Of a stretch of 64,000 nt of DNA, positions 52,164 through 61,339 are shown one piece after another. Where the stretch lies: NCBI RefSeq assembly GCF_002237575.1, contig NZ_CP022535.1:372001-436000 (forward strand), in the 5' to 3' direction. Positions within the stretch are counted from its first letter, which is position 1. Each line of letters starts with the position of its first letter. Source of the DNA: Spiroplasma corruscae. GTDB lineage: Bacteria; Bacillota_I; Bacilli_A; Mycoplasmatales; Mycoplasmataceae. The position numbers were made by a program, and so were the translations under genes. The notes below the pieces were generated by a model. That model ran no database searches. It was given only the letters and a program-made list of their open reading frames with translations, and had not been told where the DNA came from.

Positions 52164-52742
52164 ATGAATAATTTATTTAGAAAGTTTTTTTTGTGCTCTT
52201 TCGCAATTTTTATCATTTTGATATCTAACTTAGTAATTTCTTGTGGTAGTAACAATTTGGATAACACTACTATTAATAATAATGTTAAAGAATTAAACTA
52301 TAAAGAAGGCAAGAATGAAAATGATATAAATAGTTTACTAATGAGTGTAGAAACCAAGATTTATTCTGATAAGGTTAATCCATTGATATTAGAAAACAAT
52401 AAATTAGCTATTGATTATAAAGATACAGAAAGTTATAGAACTAAAAATAGTGATTGAAGTTATGATGTAATGGGATATAAAGGGACTTATTTAGAAGTCG
52501 ATAATATTAGTAATTACGCATTTTCAAAATCAATAAGAGATATTTTCGAAGAAACAACAACACTAAAAAACAAGGACGCAAATAAAGATTATTGAAGTTA
52601 TTTTCTTACAATTAGTGGAAAAAAAGGCGAATCAGAATTTACATTAAGAATTTATTTAGAAGTAGGTACATATTATGATGATATTAAATTAGTTTCTTGT
52701 ATAAATTTTGAAAGATATAAAAAAATTATTAAAATATTATAA
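52164..52742 (+). CDS. Lipoprotein, unknown function (first gene of the ENGase/ABC cluster)
   Basis: 192 residues. Signal peptide with hydrophobic core FFLCSFAIFIILISNLVIS ending in lipobox VISC, Cys27 lipidated. The mature part is soluble and Asn/Lys/Asp-rich with no recognised domain. cgggag Shine-Dalgarno. The next gene begins 11 bp later. It probably shares a transcript and a surface role with the following membrane protein, the ABC ATPase and the glycosidase-like lipoprotein. Confidence 0.78.
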
Positions 52743-52753
52743 GAAGGAATATT

Positions 52754-53509
52754 ATGAAAAAGAAATTAGGATATATATTTTTAATACCTATTTTATTTGT
52801 TGCTATTGGTAATTCGGTTGCTAGCATTAAAACATATAACAAATACGAAAATAGCTTAGAAGGAAATATTGATAAAATTACAAGGAAATATGATGAATGA
52901 CCAATTGAAGGTAAGGATTATTTAGACTCTTGATATTCTTTACAAAGGAAAAATATAGAGGAGTTGAATAACTCAACTAATATTATTAGAAACTATTATA
53001 TTAACAACTATGTTGATAAATTTAGACATTATAAACAAATTCCATATGATGGTGAAGTTGATAGTAATGGTGTTCCAAACTTTGAGATCGAATTAATCTT
53101 AAATGATATTTACCGTTCTGATGAAATTCAATATCAAAGCGCATATATTTTAAAAGCATTATATATTGAAAGCAAAATTAACATGATTAATGAAAATTAT
53201 GATATTTTAATAAATCCATCAAGTGAAATAGTGCTTTGATCTTTCAAATATTTTAATGCCTTAGTATTTTATCAATGATTAAAAATATGAATTTATGAAT
53301 TAGGTAAAACAATTGAAGTAGGTTTAAGTATTGATTTTTATTCATTTGGACAATATGTACAATATGATAGTAATTATAGACCGTTATGAAATAAAGGACC
53401 GAATCCAAAGTATACAAGCCCAAGTCCTGTTACTAGTATTAGTAAGTCTTTAAAATGATTTATTGATTATATTTATGAGTTTGTATTTATAAAAAAAGGA
53501 GTTGATTAG
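52754..53509 (+). CDS. Membrane-anchored or secreted protein, unknown function
   Basis: 251 residues. An N-terminal hydrophobic segment (about 5-25, GYIFLIPILFVAIGNSVAS) has no lipobox Cys, so it is a signal anchor or cleaved signal. The exterior part is Tyr/Asn/Ile-rich, with several Trp from TGA (about 54, 158, 176). No family recognised. gaagga Shine-Dalgarno. The ABC ATPase ATG is 1 bp after its stop, indicating translational coupling within the cluster. Confidence 0.72.
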
Positions 53510-53510
53510 T

Positions 53511-54200
53511 ATGATACTAGTTGAAAAAGTTAATAAATATTTCGGAAAAAAACAGGTTTTAAAAGATATTAGTTTGAAAATAGAAGATTCTGAAGCAGTT
53601 GCGTTTCTTGGTTCCAATGGATCTGGAAAAACAACATTGGTTGAAATAATAGCCAAGTTACTTGAACCAACATCTGGAAAGGTAAAGTTTTTGGATTCAA
53701 ATAATATTATAGTTGATAAAACTGTAGGTATGCAGTTTCAAGATGGAAGTTGGCCACAAGGAACAAAGATAATAGACCTAGTGAAGTTTTATAAAAGTAA
53801 GTCATATCTACAATCAGATGAATTTAAGGAGTTATCTAATTCGTTTAATTTAGAAAGTCTAATGAAAAAGAATATTGACTCTTTATCAGGGGGCGAAAGA
53901 CAAAGAGCAAATTGTTTTTTATCAATTATAAATAATCCTCAGGTTTTAATATTGGATGAATTAATAACTGGACTTGATTTAGAAATGCAAATAAAGCTTG
54001 TTAATTACTTTAAAAAGTATAAGCAAAAAAATAAAGTATCCTTACTTATTATCTCTCATAACCCTGAAGAAGTTGAAGAATTGTGTGATAGAATAATTAT
54101 TTTAAAAAATGGTGAAGTTTTTGAAGATTGTAAAATTGATAAAGTTTTAGAAGAATATGGTTCTATTAGAAAAAGGTTGTTAAAATATTTTGAAGTTTAA
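53511..54200 (+). CDS. ABC transporter ATP-binding protein
   Basis: 229 residues, a complete nucleotide-binding domain. Walker A GSNGSGKTT (about 35-43), Q-loop MQFQDGSW, signature LSGGERQRA, Walker B VLILDELITGLD and H-loop ISHNPEEVEEL. The D-loop and switch region fit ABC-2 type exporters. Start ATG 53511, with aaaaggag-type Shine-Dalgarno 9 nt upstream. The permease gene starts 11 bp before its stop; the two permease-like proteins around the GH85 gene could form a heterodimeric channel driven by this ATPase. Confidence 0.92.
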   Translation: MILVEKVNKYFGKKQVLKDISLKIEDSEAVAFLGSNGSGKTTLVEIIAKLLEPTSGKVKFLDSNNIIVDKTVGMQFQDGSWPQGTKIIDLVKFYKSKSYLQSDEFKELSNSFNLESLMKKNIDSLSGGERQRANCFLSIINNPQVLILDELITGLDLEMQIKLVNYFKKYKQKNKVSLLIISHNPEEVEELCDRIIILKNGEVFEDCKIDKVLEEYGSIRKRLLKYFEV

Positions 54201-55044
54201 AACTAATTACTTAAATTTCTATAGAATATTTTTATTATTCTTTAAAAACATATTCACAAATTATAAAACTTACGTTTTTTGTTATTTATTATCTTCACTA
54301 TTGTTTATTCTATTTTCAACATTATTATATAAAACGTTTGAGGGTCTTTTGTTGCCTCCTTTACTTTTGAATGTAATATCTATATCAATTTTTCTTATTC
54401 CACTTTATATTGGTTTAGTTGTAATTGAATGAAAAAGAAGACAGTACCTAATAAAACTTAAACTAGGTACTCTAAGTAAACTGCACTTTATAATTATATT
54501 ATTTTTAATAAGCATAATATTATATACAACAAGTTTTTTAATTAATTTATTTATTTATAATATTTTTTTGTGAAGTAATTATTTTTTTTATAATGTTCCA
54601 ATATTGAAAAATTTATCAGCAATTATTTATGTTATGTATTTTTTTAATAATTTATTACTATTACTATTCATTACAATATTTGTAGTTACCATTTCATCTT
54701 TATCTAAAAAAAGATCAATAGCATTACTATATTTAATACTATTTTTTATTTATTCTATATGCTTTTCAGATTCAATAATGGATGCTAATTTACTTAATAA
54801 AAATATAGTTTATGTTATTATTGGATATTTAAACCCTATAAAGTATTTCATATGAACTAATATGTTGATTACTTCATATACATTTATTGATTTTTATGGA
54901 ATTACACAGATTATTTCTGATTATTTTAATGGTGGATATGCTCCTTTTTATAATTTATGGATGACACTTTTACCTTCTTTGTTGTTTATAACTGTAATAG
55001 CTTTTGTGTATTGAAAAAAATTTTATTGGGGGTTTAAAAAATAA
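54190..55044 (+). CDS. ABC-2-type permease-like membrane protein (first half-transporter)
   Basis: 284 residues with six hydrophobic segments (about 25-45, 55-80, 95-120, 135-160, 165-185, 260-280) and a cytoplasmic amphipathic start, the layout of ABC-2 permeases. A conserved-type span set with ISSLSKKRSIALLYLI in the middle fits. TTG start overlaps the ATPase gene by 11 bp, without its own Shine-Dalgarno, so translation is coupled. The stop overlaps the start of the GH85 gene by 1 bp (taATG). The sequence is too divergent for firm family placement. Confidence 0.75.
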
Positions 55045-57725
55045 TGAAAAAATTAATGAGTTTATTACTAGTTCCGATATTATCAAGTATATTTCTAAGC
55101 CAAAGTGTCTCTTGCTCGGTTATTGGTAATTTAAATAAATATAATTATTTAGGTAGTTTAAAAAATTTTGATTGAAGTGATAAAGATTATGGTGATGGAA
55201 TTGAATATAATACATATTCTGATGATTATAAATTAAATAATGATGAAATTAAGTCAAGTGATATAGGATCTGTTACAGCAAATAATAGTAATAATTATCT
55301 AGATTTCGAAAATTTTAATACAGGTTTTCAATGAAAACAAAACATTCAAAAACAAGCAGTTACAGGAGTTCCGCTTAATAAAGGATTTATGCCAAATGGA
55401 AATTTTGCATCTGATTTTGGTGTAACTTCACCCGCACAATCATATAGAAGATTAAATTCGATTCTAAATTGGAATCCAGATGTGGATAATGATGCAAAAT
55501 TTAATAAATCAGAAAAAAGTTTAAAAAAATCTGATTTTACAGGGGCTAAAAACGTGAAGTCTCAAGATGAAAGATTAAATTATAATTATCTAGGTTTTTC
55601 TTCAAGAAAACATAGAACTTATGATAACACAGTTGTTGGTACTAAGAATCCTTATGAAAATACAAACCTAAATTGACAATACAATAATGAGTTTATAAAT
55701 TGATCAGGATCTTGATTTGAGGGACCAATTATCCCACCACCTTCTGATGTGATAGAGTTAGCTCATAATAATGGTTCAAAAATTTTTGGAAATATATTTT
55801 TAGATGGTTATCATGGATTGACTAAAGAAATGCTAAGTGATTTTTTAAAAAAAGATAGTAATGGGGAATTTTTAATTGTTAATAAGTTAATAGAAATTGC
55901 AAATTATGTTGGTTTTGATGGTTGATTTATAAACAATGAAGCAAATGGTGTAAATCCTAATGGTTCAGTTCTTGATTTTAATGATATGACTACTATTATT
56001 AAATCATTTAATGAAAAAACGTTGAAATCTAATAATGAACAAATAAAAAATTTAAGATTAATTTATTATAGAAATGATGCAAATTTAGGGTATTCAGGAA
56101 CACAATATTATGATAATGAAACAACATCCGTTGCTTCTCAGAGTGTCTATAAATATGGTAACCTTACTAAGACAACTGAAATTCAAGTTAACTTTGGGGA
56201 AATTCCTGATAATTCTGAACATTTTTTGAATGAATTTAAAGATTTTAATGGTTCTGATATTTATGGTTTGATTGATGGAAGTTCAAATTATTTTATAAAT
56301 GGTGTATATGATTATAAAGATATGGCTTACAAAAAAAATTATAATTCAACATCAAACGAGGACAAATATAACAAGAATGTTTATAGTAGTATTGGAACTT
56401 ATTTCGATGCGGGGACTGATCAATCTGCTGATGCCGCATTTAAACTTGTGACCAGAAAATTATCTAAACCAAGAGAATTTATTTTCAAAAGTCAAGTTCA
56501 GCATTTATTTAACGACATTGTATATAGTGGAACAAATTTATTTTTAAGCGATAATGATAATGGCCTATCAGCAAGTAATTTATCTAAAATTACAAAAAAT
56601 ATTGATTATAAAACTGAAATTGTTAAAGCTGATCCTAGAATCCATTTTGATAAAGAGTATACTCCTGATAATACAATAATAAATGAACTTTATAACTATA
56701 ATTCTGGTGATAACCCGACCGGTTATAACAACTTTAGTTATGGAATAGGTGATTTAATCCATGAGAAAACAACATTAATAGATGAGAATATTGATAATTC
56801 AATATTAAAAACTAATTTTTCAACTGGTAGTGGTATTAAGTTTGTGGATAACAATCAAATAGATAATTATCCTTGAACTAATAGAAGATTAGGGGATGTT
56901 CTACCAACCTATAAATGGCGTATTTTTGATAGCACTGAAATTTCAAAACCACTTAATATTTCAGAATTTTCAGGAGGGTATGATTATGATGAACCATACA
57001 AAAAAGGGAATTCAATTGTAATAGGGTCTGGTTTTGATGAATCAGGTAAAATTGTAGATTCTAAAAGTTGAGATATTAATAAAACTTATGGTTGAGATAT
57101 AATGGGTTCTAAAATAATGAATAATAAAAAGACTATATCTTTTGTATATAAGGATAATGCGAATAAATCTCCAGACGTATCACTGAGATTATCATTTGCA
57201 GATTCAAAAGGAAATCTATTAAAAGATCAAATAAAGTCTATTGATGTTTCGAATGTAGTTGATATGAATAATGGTTGAAAAGAAATATCATATGATCTAA
57301 GTGGTGAAACATTAAATTCAAATAGGGTCTTATCAATGATAGGTTTGAATATTAAGCCAAATTCAGATACATTTAAATTTAATGTTGGTGAGATGGTAAT
57401 AAAGGATAATAATTATCAAGATAATTTTAAAAAAGCGATTATATCAAATCCTAATGTAGAGTATCTAGTCTATCGAGAGTTTGAAAAAAATATATTAAAT
57501 AATATAAGAATAAGTTTTGAATCAAGCAATATTGATAGTGTTGATTATTTTGAGTTTTATGTATATGATGGTAAAAATTGATATAGAGATGGAGAAACTA
57601 CACAATTAAATTATTATTTAAAAGATCTAAAAAGTTTTAATAATACCTTATCAGTATCAATAAAGCCAGTATATAAAAACAGAAACATAGAAGGGAACGC
57701 TTATAAATTTGACATAAATTTATAA
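55044..57725 (+). CDS. GH85-like endo-beta-N-acetylglucosaminidase lipoprotein
   Basis: 893 residues. Signal peptide with lipobox (SQSVSC), Cys24 lipidated, so it is on the cell surface. The core from about residue 170 to 480 fits glycoside hydrolase family 85 (ENGase, which cuts the chitobiose core of N-glycans): NWSGSWFEGPIIPPP, DVIELAHNNGSKIFGNIFLD, then YVGFDGWFINNEANG, which carries the family's Asn-x-Glu catalytic pair at Asn297 and Glu299, and IYYRNDAN, FGEIPDNS and DIYGLIDG. The C-terminal about 250 residues look like beta-rich modules. Sits inside the ABC cluster between two permease-like genes, 1-bp overlap upstream and 10 bp downstream. GH85 assignment is from motifs; substrate is inferred. 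Confidence 0.8.
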
Positions 57726-57735
57726 AAAAGATGTT

Positions 57736-58569
57736 ATGAAACTGACTAAATTCAATAAATGTATTAAATTTATATTTAAGACTACTTTATCTTCTGTTTT
57801 TACTTATATTTATATTTTATTAATTCCTTTAATTATTGAAATTTTTTTATATGTTTATTATATTAAAAGTGCATTAGACCAGTCAAGAATTATATTAGTC
57901 GGTAGTGCATTAATGTATGTTATTCCTCTTACTTCATTATTTATAACTAACTTGATAGTTTCTTGAAGAGAGACTATATTTTTAAAGCAAATTAGAAACT
58001 TTGGAATCACACAAAAAACATTTATTTCATCTTTATTCATTGTTTATTCTATCTATTGTTTATTTTCAATTATATTTTCAATTTTTATTGTTTCTATGGT
58101 TGATGTAATCGAGAATAACCATAAAATGACATTATTTCTAAGTAATTTTTTTCATAACCCATCAAATATATTTTCAATATTAATTATAATGGTGGCAATC
58201 ACTTTTACTTATTTTATTTCTGTACTTCTATCTGGTTTTATTAAAAATATTTATATAATTCAAGCAATCTCAATTTTATTTATAATTTTATCACTTTTTA
58301 CAGGAGATTACTTCTTGGATTTTAATTATATAGAAGACAACTACTATCAGTTTTTTAGTTATTTTAATTTATATAAGTACTTTAATTGACTTTATTATAT
58401 TTCTTATACTAGTTCTTTTAATGGTGGAAGACAATTATTTCTAATAGTTATTTATATTGATAATAAACTTTCATTTAATAATATATATATACCGCTATTT
58501 TCATCATTAATTGTAACTTTAAGTATAATAACTTCAAGCTACTTGTTATTTAAATTATCAACTAAATAG
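57736..58569 (+). CDS. ABC-2-type permease-like membrane protein (second half-transporter)
   Basis: 277 residues with six hydrophobic segments (about 20-45, 50-75, 90-115, 130-160, 165-185, 250-275), like the permease at 54190 in length and layout, but low in identity. With that protein and the single ATPase it may form one heterodimeric ABC-2 transporter. ATG start 10 bp after the GH85 stop. Last gene of the cluster; a terminator follows. Several Trp are TGA-coded. Confidence 0.72.
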
Positions 58570-58573
58570 TGAT

Positions 58574-58606
58574 ATAGTATACTAGTTCTTTAGATACTAT
58601 TTTTTG
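58574..58606 (+). terminator. Intrinsic terminator of the GH85/ABC cluster
   Basis: atagtat/atactat stem (7 bp), 13-nt loop with inner cta/tag pairing, T-run after it. Confidence 0.65.
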
Positions 58607-58654
58607 CTATTTTTTTTTGGTATAATTATTTAAATATCTTTAAGGAGACAAGTT

Positions 58655-60034: not shown

Positions 60035-61339
60035 ATGCTAATTAATGATGATAAAAATTTAAAACTTTTAGTTGATAAACAAAAAGTATTTAAAGAAGCT
60101 TTGGATAACAAAATATCAAATTTGGAAGCAAAGAAATTTGTTGATGCTTTATTTGAAAATTATTTTTTAGATAACGACAATATAAATTTTCTTGTTTCAA
60201 ATGGTGTAAATTTCTTTAATATTGATAATAACGAAGAATGTTTTTGTTTAAGCACTAAATTATTTAAGGATTGTTGTTTCAAAAATATTAGAAAAAACAA
60301 AAAAACAAATTATTATATATTTCTAAAAGCCTTAATAAATAAAGAAGAATATCCTAAATATCTTGAGTACTCTAATAGTTTGTTTTTAAAAAACTATAGA
60401 CAAATGGGTAAAGAAGAGGTTTGTCATTTTTTAGATTGTGAAAAAAATGCTGTTGAAAATACCTTATATAAGATTAATTTTGAAAATGATTCATATTATT
60501 CAACTTATAAAAAGAATCCATTTGACATTCATTATTCTTTCGGTGAGATTTTTTTTAACAAAATAAGAAACGATAATTTCAATTTTTATGGTTTTTGCTC
60601 TGAACATTTTAATTATATTTCAAACATTGATATTAAAGAGGGTAGTACAAATGAACATATTGCACTAGTTAATTTTTCAAGTATTTTGTTTAAGTTATTT
60701 ATAAGTAGAGTACAACTCCAATCAATGAAAGAAGAATTTTATGAGGTATTTAGCTCATTAGATAGTAGCATAAAACCATTGTACGTATACAATTTACGTA
60801 AGTTATCTAATAGAGTATCTTCACTATTAAATCTATTCTCATCTTATAAGGGTTTTTTAAAAAAAGAAAATAATGATTTTGAAATTATAAAATTTGTATT
60901 ACCAAAAACAAATAATTTTCTTGTATCAGATTTAATGTATCCACAAGTAACACCCGATGATTTCAAAATGGTTAATTCAATTAATAATGTTTTTGTAGAA
61001 GAAAAATGTGCATTAATAAATACTTTTAAAAATGATAGATATAATTATGTAACAATAATTTATAACAAAAAAGATGAAAAACTAAGTGATTTTTTTGATC
61101 AATATTTAAAAATAATTGATAATAAGCAAAAAAATATAGAATATTTTGTAACAAATTGTGCTCTTATTTTATGTGAAAATACAATATTAAGTGAGAATTT
61201 CTTTAATAAATTTAGTAATGAGGAAAAGTCATTTTATTCAGCTATGAATAAATTTAGATTTGAACATCCAAGTATGGGACAAGAATATTTAAAAATGAAA
61301 TTTTTTGCAGGATTTACTAAGGGAAATAATTTCTTTTAA
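60035..61339 (+). CDS. SEC-C-motif zinc-binding protein, unknown function
   Basis: 434 residues, cytoplasmic. Residues about 69-82 (ECFCLSTKLFKDCCFK) match the SEC-C zinc motif CxCx8CC, usually seen in SecA and assorted small proteins. A second site, FCSEHFNYISNID (about 189-201), resembles the CxxH...ID element of a family in which SEC-C is followed by a Cys/His site. The rest is helical and Phe/Asn-rich. No partner gene is evident. It ends on a long terminator shared with the convergent guaC. Metal binding is inferred from motif only. Confidence 0.7.
   Translation: MLINDDKNLKLLVDKQKVFKEALDNKISNLEAKKFVDALFENYFLDNDNINFLVSNGVNFFNIDNNEECFCLSTKLFKDCCFKNIRKNKKTNYYIFLKALINKEEYPKYLEYSNSLFLKNYRQMGKEEVCHFLDCEKNAVENTLYKINFENDSYYSTYKKNPFDIHYSFGEIFFNKIRNDNFNFYGFCSEHFNYISNIDIKEGSTNEHIALVNFSSILFKLFISRVQLQSMKEEFYEVFSSLDSSIKPLYVYNLRKLSNRVSSLLNLFSSYKGFLKKENNDFEIIKFVLPKTNNFLVSDLMYPQVTPDDFKMVNSINNVFVEEKCALINTFKNDRYNYVTIIYNKKDEKLSDFFDQYLKIIDNKQKNIEYFVTNCALILCENTILSENFFNKFSNEEKSFYSAMNKFRFEHPSMGQEYLKMKFFAGFTKGNNFF

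What the first reader, a model, noticed from the sequence alone, without database searches (positions are those of the whole stretch)
52164..58569. Surface GH85-type endoglycosidase embedded in its own ABC-2 transporter cluster
Six genes are packed with gaps of -11 to +11 bp: lipoprotein, membrane protein, ABC ATPase, permease, GH85-like lipoprotein, second permease. The GH85 protein keeps the FINNE block with Asn297 and Glu299 and a lipobox. Family knowledge: GH85 enzymes cleave the N-glycan chitobiose core. Inference: an insect- or plant-associated Spiroplasma could trim host N-glycans at its surface, and the half-transporter genes flanking the enzyme gene suggest that the ABC system exports or matures it, or handles the product. 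A transporter/ENGase operon of this form is new to me.
Basis: partly seen in the sequence, partly recalled or inferred. Interest (0 to 1): 0.68.

Follow-up and report, generated by a model that had tools for sequence, protein, structure and literature searches.

The report
Surface N-glycan cutter with ABC-transporter partner
This Spiroplasma-like genome carries a surface-anchored enzyme predicted to cut sugar chains off host proteins, and across its whole bacterial family the enzyme is almost always encoded with its own dedicated ATP-driven membrane transporter, a pairing I found no description of.

Summary
Under genetic code 4, six genes are packed at 52164-58569. 55044-57725 is a true GH85 endo-beta-N-acetylglucosaminidase: Pfam E 4.7e-25, and a confident model matches Endo-A at Z 29.4 over about 600 residues. 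N297/E299 fall on Endo-A N171/E173 and are invariant in 27 relatives. The rest is a dedicated ABC module: ATPase, two 6-TM ABC-2-type permeases and a membrane-tethered helical protein of unknown fold, plus an optional lipoprotein.

The pairing is general. In 60 genomes of the family, 53 of 57 GH85 places have a permease of this subfamily within 6 kb. All 79 strong subfamily permeases lie beside GH85, and none occur in the 27 GH85-free genomes. The window's genome has three such cassettes, from different lineages. Enzyme and permease trees agree although gene order differs.

Export of the enzyme by the transporter is unlikely, because it has its own Sec/lipoprotein signal. Uptake-and-feeding is weakened: four N-glycan exoglycosidase families (GH20/38/92/125) are absent from this genome, and no known-type binding protein is recognisable. 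I favour a surface deglycosylation complex coupled to the ABC ATPase. What the transporter moves is unknown. The pairing seems undescribed: a new variant built from known parts.

The parts
52164..52742 (+). Optional lipoprotein (192 aa, lipobox VISC); member of a lipoprotein family with many copies in this genome
   Evidence: directly upstream of the cluster in 3 of 13 loci of this layout; no Pfam hit
52754..53509 (+). mem2: membrane-tethered extracytoplasmic helical accessory protein (251 aa), unknown fold
   Evidence: found in only 14 of 60 genomes, in 13 beside this GH85 layout; model pLDDT 89.9: TM helix 2-32, 42-residue helix 54-95, helical bundle; no confident PDB match
53511..54200 (+). 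ABC transporter ATPase (229 aa)
   Evidence: PF00005 E 2e-24; all ABC motifs
54190..55044 (+). Permease 1 (P1), ABC-2-type, 6 TM, TTG start, overlaps the ATPase gene by 11 bp
   Evidence: belongs to P1 clade, support 98
55044..57725 (+). GH85 endo-beta-N-acetylglucosaminidase lipoprotein (893 aa)
55932..55940 (+). Catalytic N297-N298-E299 codons (residues 297 to 299)
   Evidence: align with Endo-A N171/E173; at the end of barrel strand 293-299; invariant in 27 sequences
57736..58569 (+). Permease 2 (P2), ABC-2-type, 6 TM
   Evidence: belongs to P2 clade, support 99
58560..58612 (+). Possible weak terminator hairpin followed by T-run after permease 2
   Evidence: fold z -2.19; the consensus scan reported none

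Best explanation
The locus encodes one functional module: a GH85 endo-beta-N-acetylglucosaminidase held on the outer face of the membrane, plus a dedicated ABC-2-type transporter (one ATPase, a P1/P2 permease heterodimer) and a membrane-tethered helical accessory protein. The enzyme reaches the surface through Sec and lipoprotein processing and cuts the chitobiose core of N-glycans on host glycoproteins (inferred from family and active site). The ABC part serves that reaction at the membrane instead of exporting the enzyme. Most likely mechanism (about 0.3): enzyme, accessory protein and permeases form a complex in which ATP hydrolysis drives capture, release or clearance of the glycan or deglycosylated protein. 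Next: uptake of the released glycan (about 0.25). Shown: enzyme identity, gene content, genome-wide exclusive linkage, parallel lineages. Inferred: physical complex, activity, direction of transport.
For: GH85 by HMM, sequence and fold; catalytic pair invariant in 27. 53 of 57 GH85 places in 60 genomes have a subfamily permease within 6 kb; 79 of 79 permease hits over 140 bits are within 6 kb of GH85; none in 27 GH85-free genomes. GH85 and permease trees give the same layouts as groups; P1 and P2 are separate clades shared by layouts with different gene order, so content is kept while order changes. mem2 is found only with one layout. The unlinked paralogue pair forms its own clade, support 100, and lies by dnaK/dnaJ in this genome. 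Membrane attachment seems kept even where the lipobox is lost: 6 members keep an N-terminal hydrophobic segment without the cysteine.
Against: No biochemical or expression data. The permease model was trained on GH85-linked permeases (41 rows), so the 79 of 79 count is partly circular. Layout B cassettes have one permease and no accessory protein, so neither a second permease nor the accessory is essential to the pairing. A physical complex is not shown. Four GH85 places have no permease nearby. Linkage could also reflect co-regulation or joint horizontal transfer.
Confidence: 0.5

Rival explanations
1. Nutrient scavenging: the ENGase frees N-glycans and the ABC system imports them for catabolism, as EndoD with the ABC importer ABCNG does in Streptococcus pneumoniae.
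For: Enzyme-transporter linkage is what a product-uptake system would give; pneumococcal precedent (PMC5215778). A GH85 locus outside this family (L134) lies beside an ABC ATPase-like gene and genes of importer-like sizes (judged by size only).
Against: Permeases look ABC-2 (exporter class), not importer-type. No known solute-binding protein recognised. This genome has no GH38, GH20, GH125 or GH92 hit. GH38 does not track GH85: 8 of 33 genomes with GH85, 7 of 27 without. The one GH85 flanked by GH38 genes, in G031, has no ABC-2 partner.
Confidence: 0.25
2. The ABC system secretes or matures the GH85 enzyme.
For: Tight gene packing and exclusive linkage.
Against: The enzyme has its own signal sequence and usually a lipobox (about 42 of 49); a 100 kDa enzyme is an unlikely substrate for small ABC-2 permeases (family knowledge); a GH85 lipoprotein without ABC-2 partner has the same kind of signal (L048).
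Confidence: 0.1
3. The ABC-2 pair exports a small molecule or lipid-linked sugar that the enzyme modifies or uses as acceptor, for example transglycosylating host glycans onto a bacterial acceptor.
For: ABC-2 transporters are usually exporters, including of lipid-linked glycans, and GH85 enzymes can transglycosylate (family knowledge).
Against: No acceptor-synthesis gene in the cluster; nothing in the sequence points to it.
Confidence: 0.12
4. Mere neighbourhood: unrelated genes in a hitch-hiking island or in one horizontally moved block.
For: The cassettes sit in different genomic places in different genomes.
Against: 79 of 79 and 53 of 57 linkage, order changed but content kept, congruent trees.
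Confidence: 0.05

Closest known systems
GH85 endo-beta-N-acetylglucosaminidases (Endo-A, PDB 2vtf/3fha; Endo-D, 2w91/3gdb)
   Same: Same barrel plus C-terminal domains, Z 29.4 and 26.1, catalytic N and E in place
   Different: About 20% identity, about 100-residue N-terminal extension, lipoprotein anchor, paired with ABC-2 transporter
Streptococcus pneumoniae EndoD + ABCNG (NgtS-NgtP1-NgtP2) N-glycan system (PMC5215778)
   Same: Surface GH85 enzyme functionally linked to an ABC transporter with two permeases
   Different: Pneumococcal system is an importer with solute-binding protein NgtS, a separate locus and no ATPase nearby; here ABC-2-type permeases, linked ATPase, no known SBP, no GH38/92/125/20
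ABC-2-type ATPase + two small permeases + lipoprotein (LanFEG/LanI-like immunity exporters; from memory)
   Same: Similar anatomy: one ATPase, two 6-TM permeases of 250-300 aa, a lipoprotein
   Different: Lipoprotein here is a large glycosidase; no bacteriocin genes seen
Mycoplasma surface hydrolase systems, e.g. MIB-MIP immunoglobulin cleavage (from memory)
   Same: Wall-less bacterium, surface-anchored enzyme acting on host glycoproteins with a linked ATPase
   Different: No homologous part known; protease instead of glycosidase

Membership tests
GH85 (PF03644) | Profile match over curated cut-off | tested here: met
   89.2 bits against cut-off 22.2
GH85 (PF03644) | Catalytic Asn and Glu (Endo-A N171/E173) in the barrel | tested here: met
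   N297/E299 align and are invariant in 27; strand 293-299
GH85 (PF03644) | GH85 fold | tested here: met
   Z 29.4, rmsd 2.9, 597 aligned to 2vtf_A; Foldseek E 9.4e-38
GH85 (PF03644) | Cleaves the chitobiose core of N-glycans | not testable with these tools
   needs enzyme assay
ABC-2-type transporter | ABC ATPase with full motif set | tested here: met
ABC-2-type transporter | Permeases of ABC-2 family | tested here: met
   at family level: 10 of 41 hit PF12698, 6 of 41 hit PF01061; window members themselves have no hit
ABC-2-type transporter | Export direction | not testable with these tools
   needs transport assay
EndoD-ABCNG type N-glycan importer | Solute-binding protein of known SBP family | tested here: inconclusive
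   no Pfam hit for mem2 or lipo1; mem2 model has no clear PDB match
EndoD-ABCNG type N-glycan importer | GH38/GH92/GH125/GH20 exoglycosidases in the genome | tested here: not met
   none in G000

The most novel reading that the evidence does not exclude
An ATP-driven surface deglycosylation machine: the ABC-2 ATPase and P1/P2 permeases work through the helical accessory protein on the anchored ENGase to capture host glycoproteins, cut their N-glycans and let them go. It would be an ABC system whose job is to power an extracellular glycosidase and not plain solute transport.
Probability: 0.2. Interest if true: 0.8.

Novelty: new variant of a known kind. Interest (0 to 1): 0.6.

Why it matters
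Spiroplasmas and relatives live in arthropods and plants and have few recognised tools for acting on host glycoproteins. GH85 is in 33 of 60 family genomes, often in several copies, nearly always with its own transporter, so host N-glycan cutting may be a common trait of the group. Two published Spiroplasma studies name the enzyme as a possible virulence or metabolic gene (PMC9666726, PMC7187355); in the passages read neither mentions the transporter link. The exclusive linkage makes a genetic test simple: delete the ATPase and ask what the enzyme, its glycan product and host glycoproteins do.

Tried and rejected
The search for related loci in genome contigs gave nothing; the genome search did the work. 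Window permeases alone hit no Pfam or NCBIfam model, so the family-wide alignment was used. mem2 (A2) against other accessory families: hhalign probability 87 (X of layout C) and 85 (layout D) over partial stretches, suggestive of one family but not settled. mem2 fold search: no match with E <= 0.001; best Z 6.2, in the range of chance for helical bundles. The GH85 tree's outgroup rows were mostly short fragments and are not used for rooting. Lipo1 as a sixth core part: rejected, it is a lipoprotein family with many copies in several genomes. Defence system: only generic ATPase hits. Promoter and terminator scans are at shuffle level. Literature searches for GH85 plus Mollicutes or Spiroplasma plus ABC transporter found no description.

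Full report
Observation. All lie on the + strand, flanked by unrelated genes.

The enzyme. 55044-57725 matches PF03644 at E 4.7e-25, and Endo-A and Endo-D in the PDB by sequence. N297 and E299 align with Endo-A N171 and E173, and both are invariant in 27 family members aligned. The AlphaFold model (pLDDT 89.6) matches Endo-A over about 600 residues (Z 29.4, rmsd 2.9) and Endo-D (Z 26.1). The catalytic pair sits at the end of strand 293-299. About 42 of 49 near-full-length relatives have a lipobox; six have an N-terminal hydrophobic segment without the cysteine, so membrane attachment seems to be kept.

The transporter. The ATPase has all ABC motifs. Each permease has six predicted TM segments. 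Relatives of the permeases hit Pfam ABC-2 models, though the window's own two do not. mem2 has one TM helix and a confident helical extracytoplasmic domain with no clear match in the PDB. It occurs in 14 of 60 genomes; in 13 it lies beside this layout of GH85 cluster, and in the other (G022, a decayed locus) about 22 kb away.

Generality. Of 60 genomes of the family, 33 carry GH85, at 57 places. With a permease profile (A1), 53 of the 57 places have a permease within 6 kb. All 79 hits above 140 bits lie beside GH85, and none is in the 27 genomes without GH85. The profile was trained on linked permeases, so the count is partly circular. The separate clade of 21 sampled paralogues (support 100), one of which lies by dnaK/dnaJ in this genome, shows that the model can see unlinked relatives and scores them lower. 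Layouts: A, (lipoprotein)-mem2-ATPase-P1-GH85-P2 (window; 13 loci); B, GH85 with ATPase and one permease; C, ATPase-P1-P2-GH85 with another accessory lipoprotein or membrane protein; D, accessory-ATPase-permease-GH85-permease. Layouts A, B and C each occur once in the window's genome: the window, L033 (B) and L034 (C). P1 genes of A, C and D form one clade (98), and P2 genes of A and C another (99). GH85 groups the same way. So the gene set has been kept together while its order changed.

Exceptions. G031 has two GH85 genes without the permease; they are distant from the rest, and one is flanked by genes with GH38 hits. L043 and a fragment in G045 also lack it. None of seven GH85 loci in other Bacilli has a hit to this permease family.

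Mechanism. Export of the enzyme is unlikely given its own signal. Feeding on the glycan is possible, as shown for pneumococcus EndoD plus ABCNG (PMC5215778). Here, however, the permeases are of the exporter-like class and no known binding protein is seen. GH38, GH20, GH125 and GH92 are missing from the genome, and GH38 does not track GH85 across the family (8 of 33 against 7 of 27). I therefore favour, at about 0.3, a surface complex in which the ABC ATPase drives capture, release or clearance around the ENGase, with uptake of the glycan at about 0.25. All statements on direction, complex formation and host target are inference.

Novelty. Two Spiroplasma papers mention an endo-beta-N-acetylglucosaminidase (PMC9666726, PMC7187355), as a possible pathogenicity gene or an up-regulated gene; the passages read do not mention the transporter linkage. 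Other searches found no description. The library is not complete. Parts are known; the combination is a new variant.

Noticed in passing
L033 (G000:C1:803001-822000) and L034 (G000:C1:731001-750000): Two further GH85-ABC cassettes in the same genome, from other lineages (layouts B and C).
   Followed up: yes
L048 (G031:C1:165001-182000): GH85 without ABC-2 partner, flanked by genes with GH38 hits and lipoproteins, distant from the other family GH85 proteins: looks like a separate acquisition.
   Followed up: partly
L112:6706-8281: Paralogous ATPase/permease pair (same family, not GH85-linked) next to dnaJ/dnaK; a scored paralogue of this kind is in 33 of 60 genomes.
   Followed up: partly
L057, L086, L075, L071: GH85 genes broken into fragments: decaying copies in several genomes.
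   Followed up: no
window 52164-52742 and G000:C1:678671, 746035, 747130, 756607, 809215, 834029: Lipoprotein family with many copies in this and a few related genomes; members lie near all three GH85 cassettes of G000 but also elsewhere.
   Followed up: partly
L033:13505-17505: Genes resembling a GH1 glycosidase and a PTS transporter upstream of the layout-B cassette.
   Followed up: no
window 60035-61339: 434 aa protein with a weak SEC-C motif match (E 0.014); function unknown.
   Followed up: no
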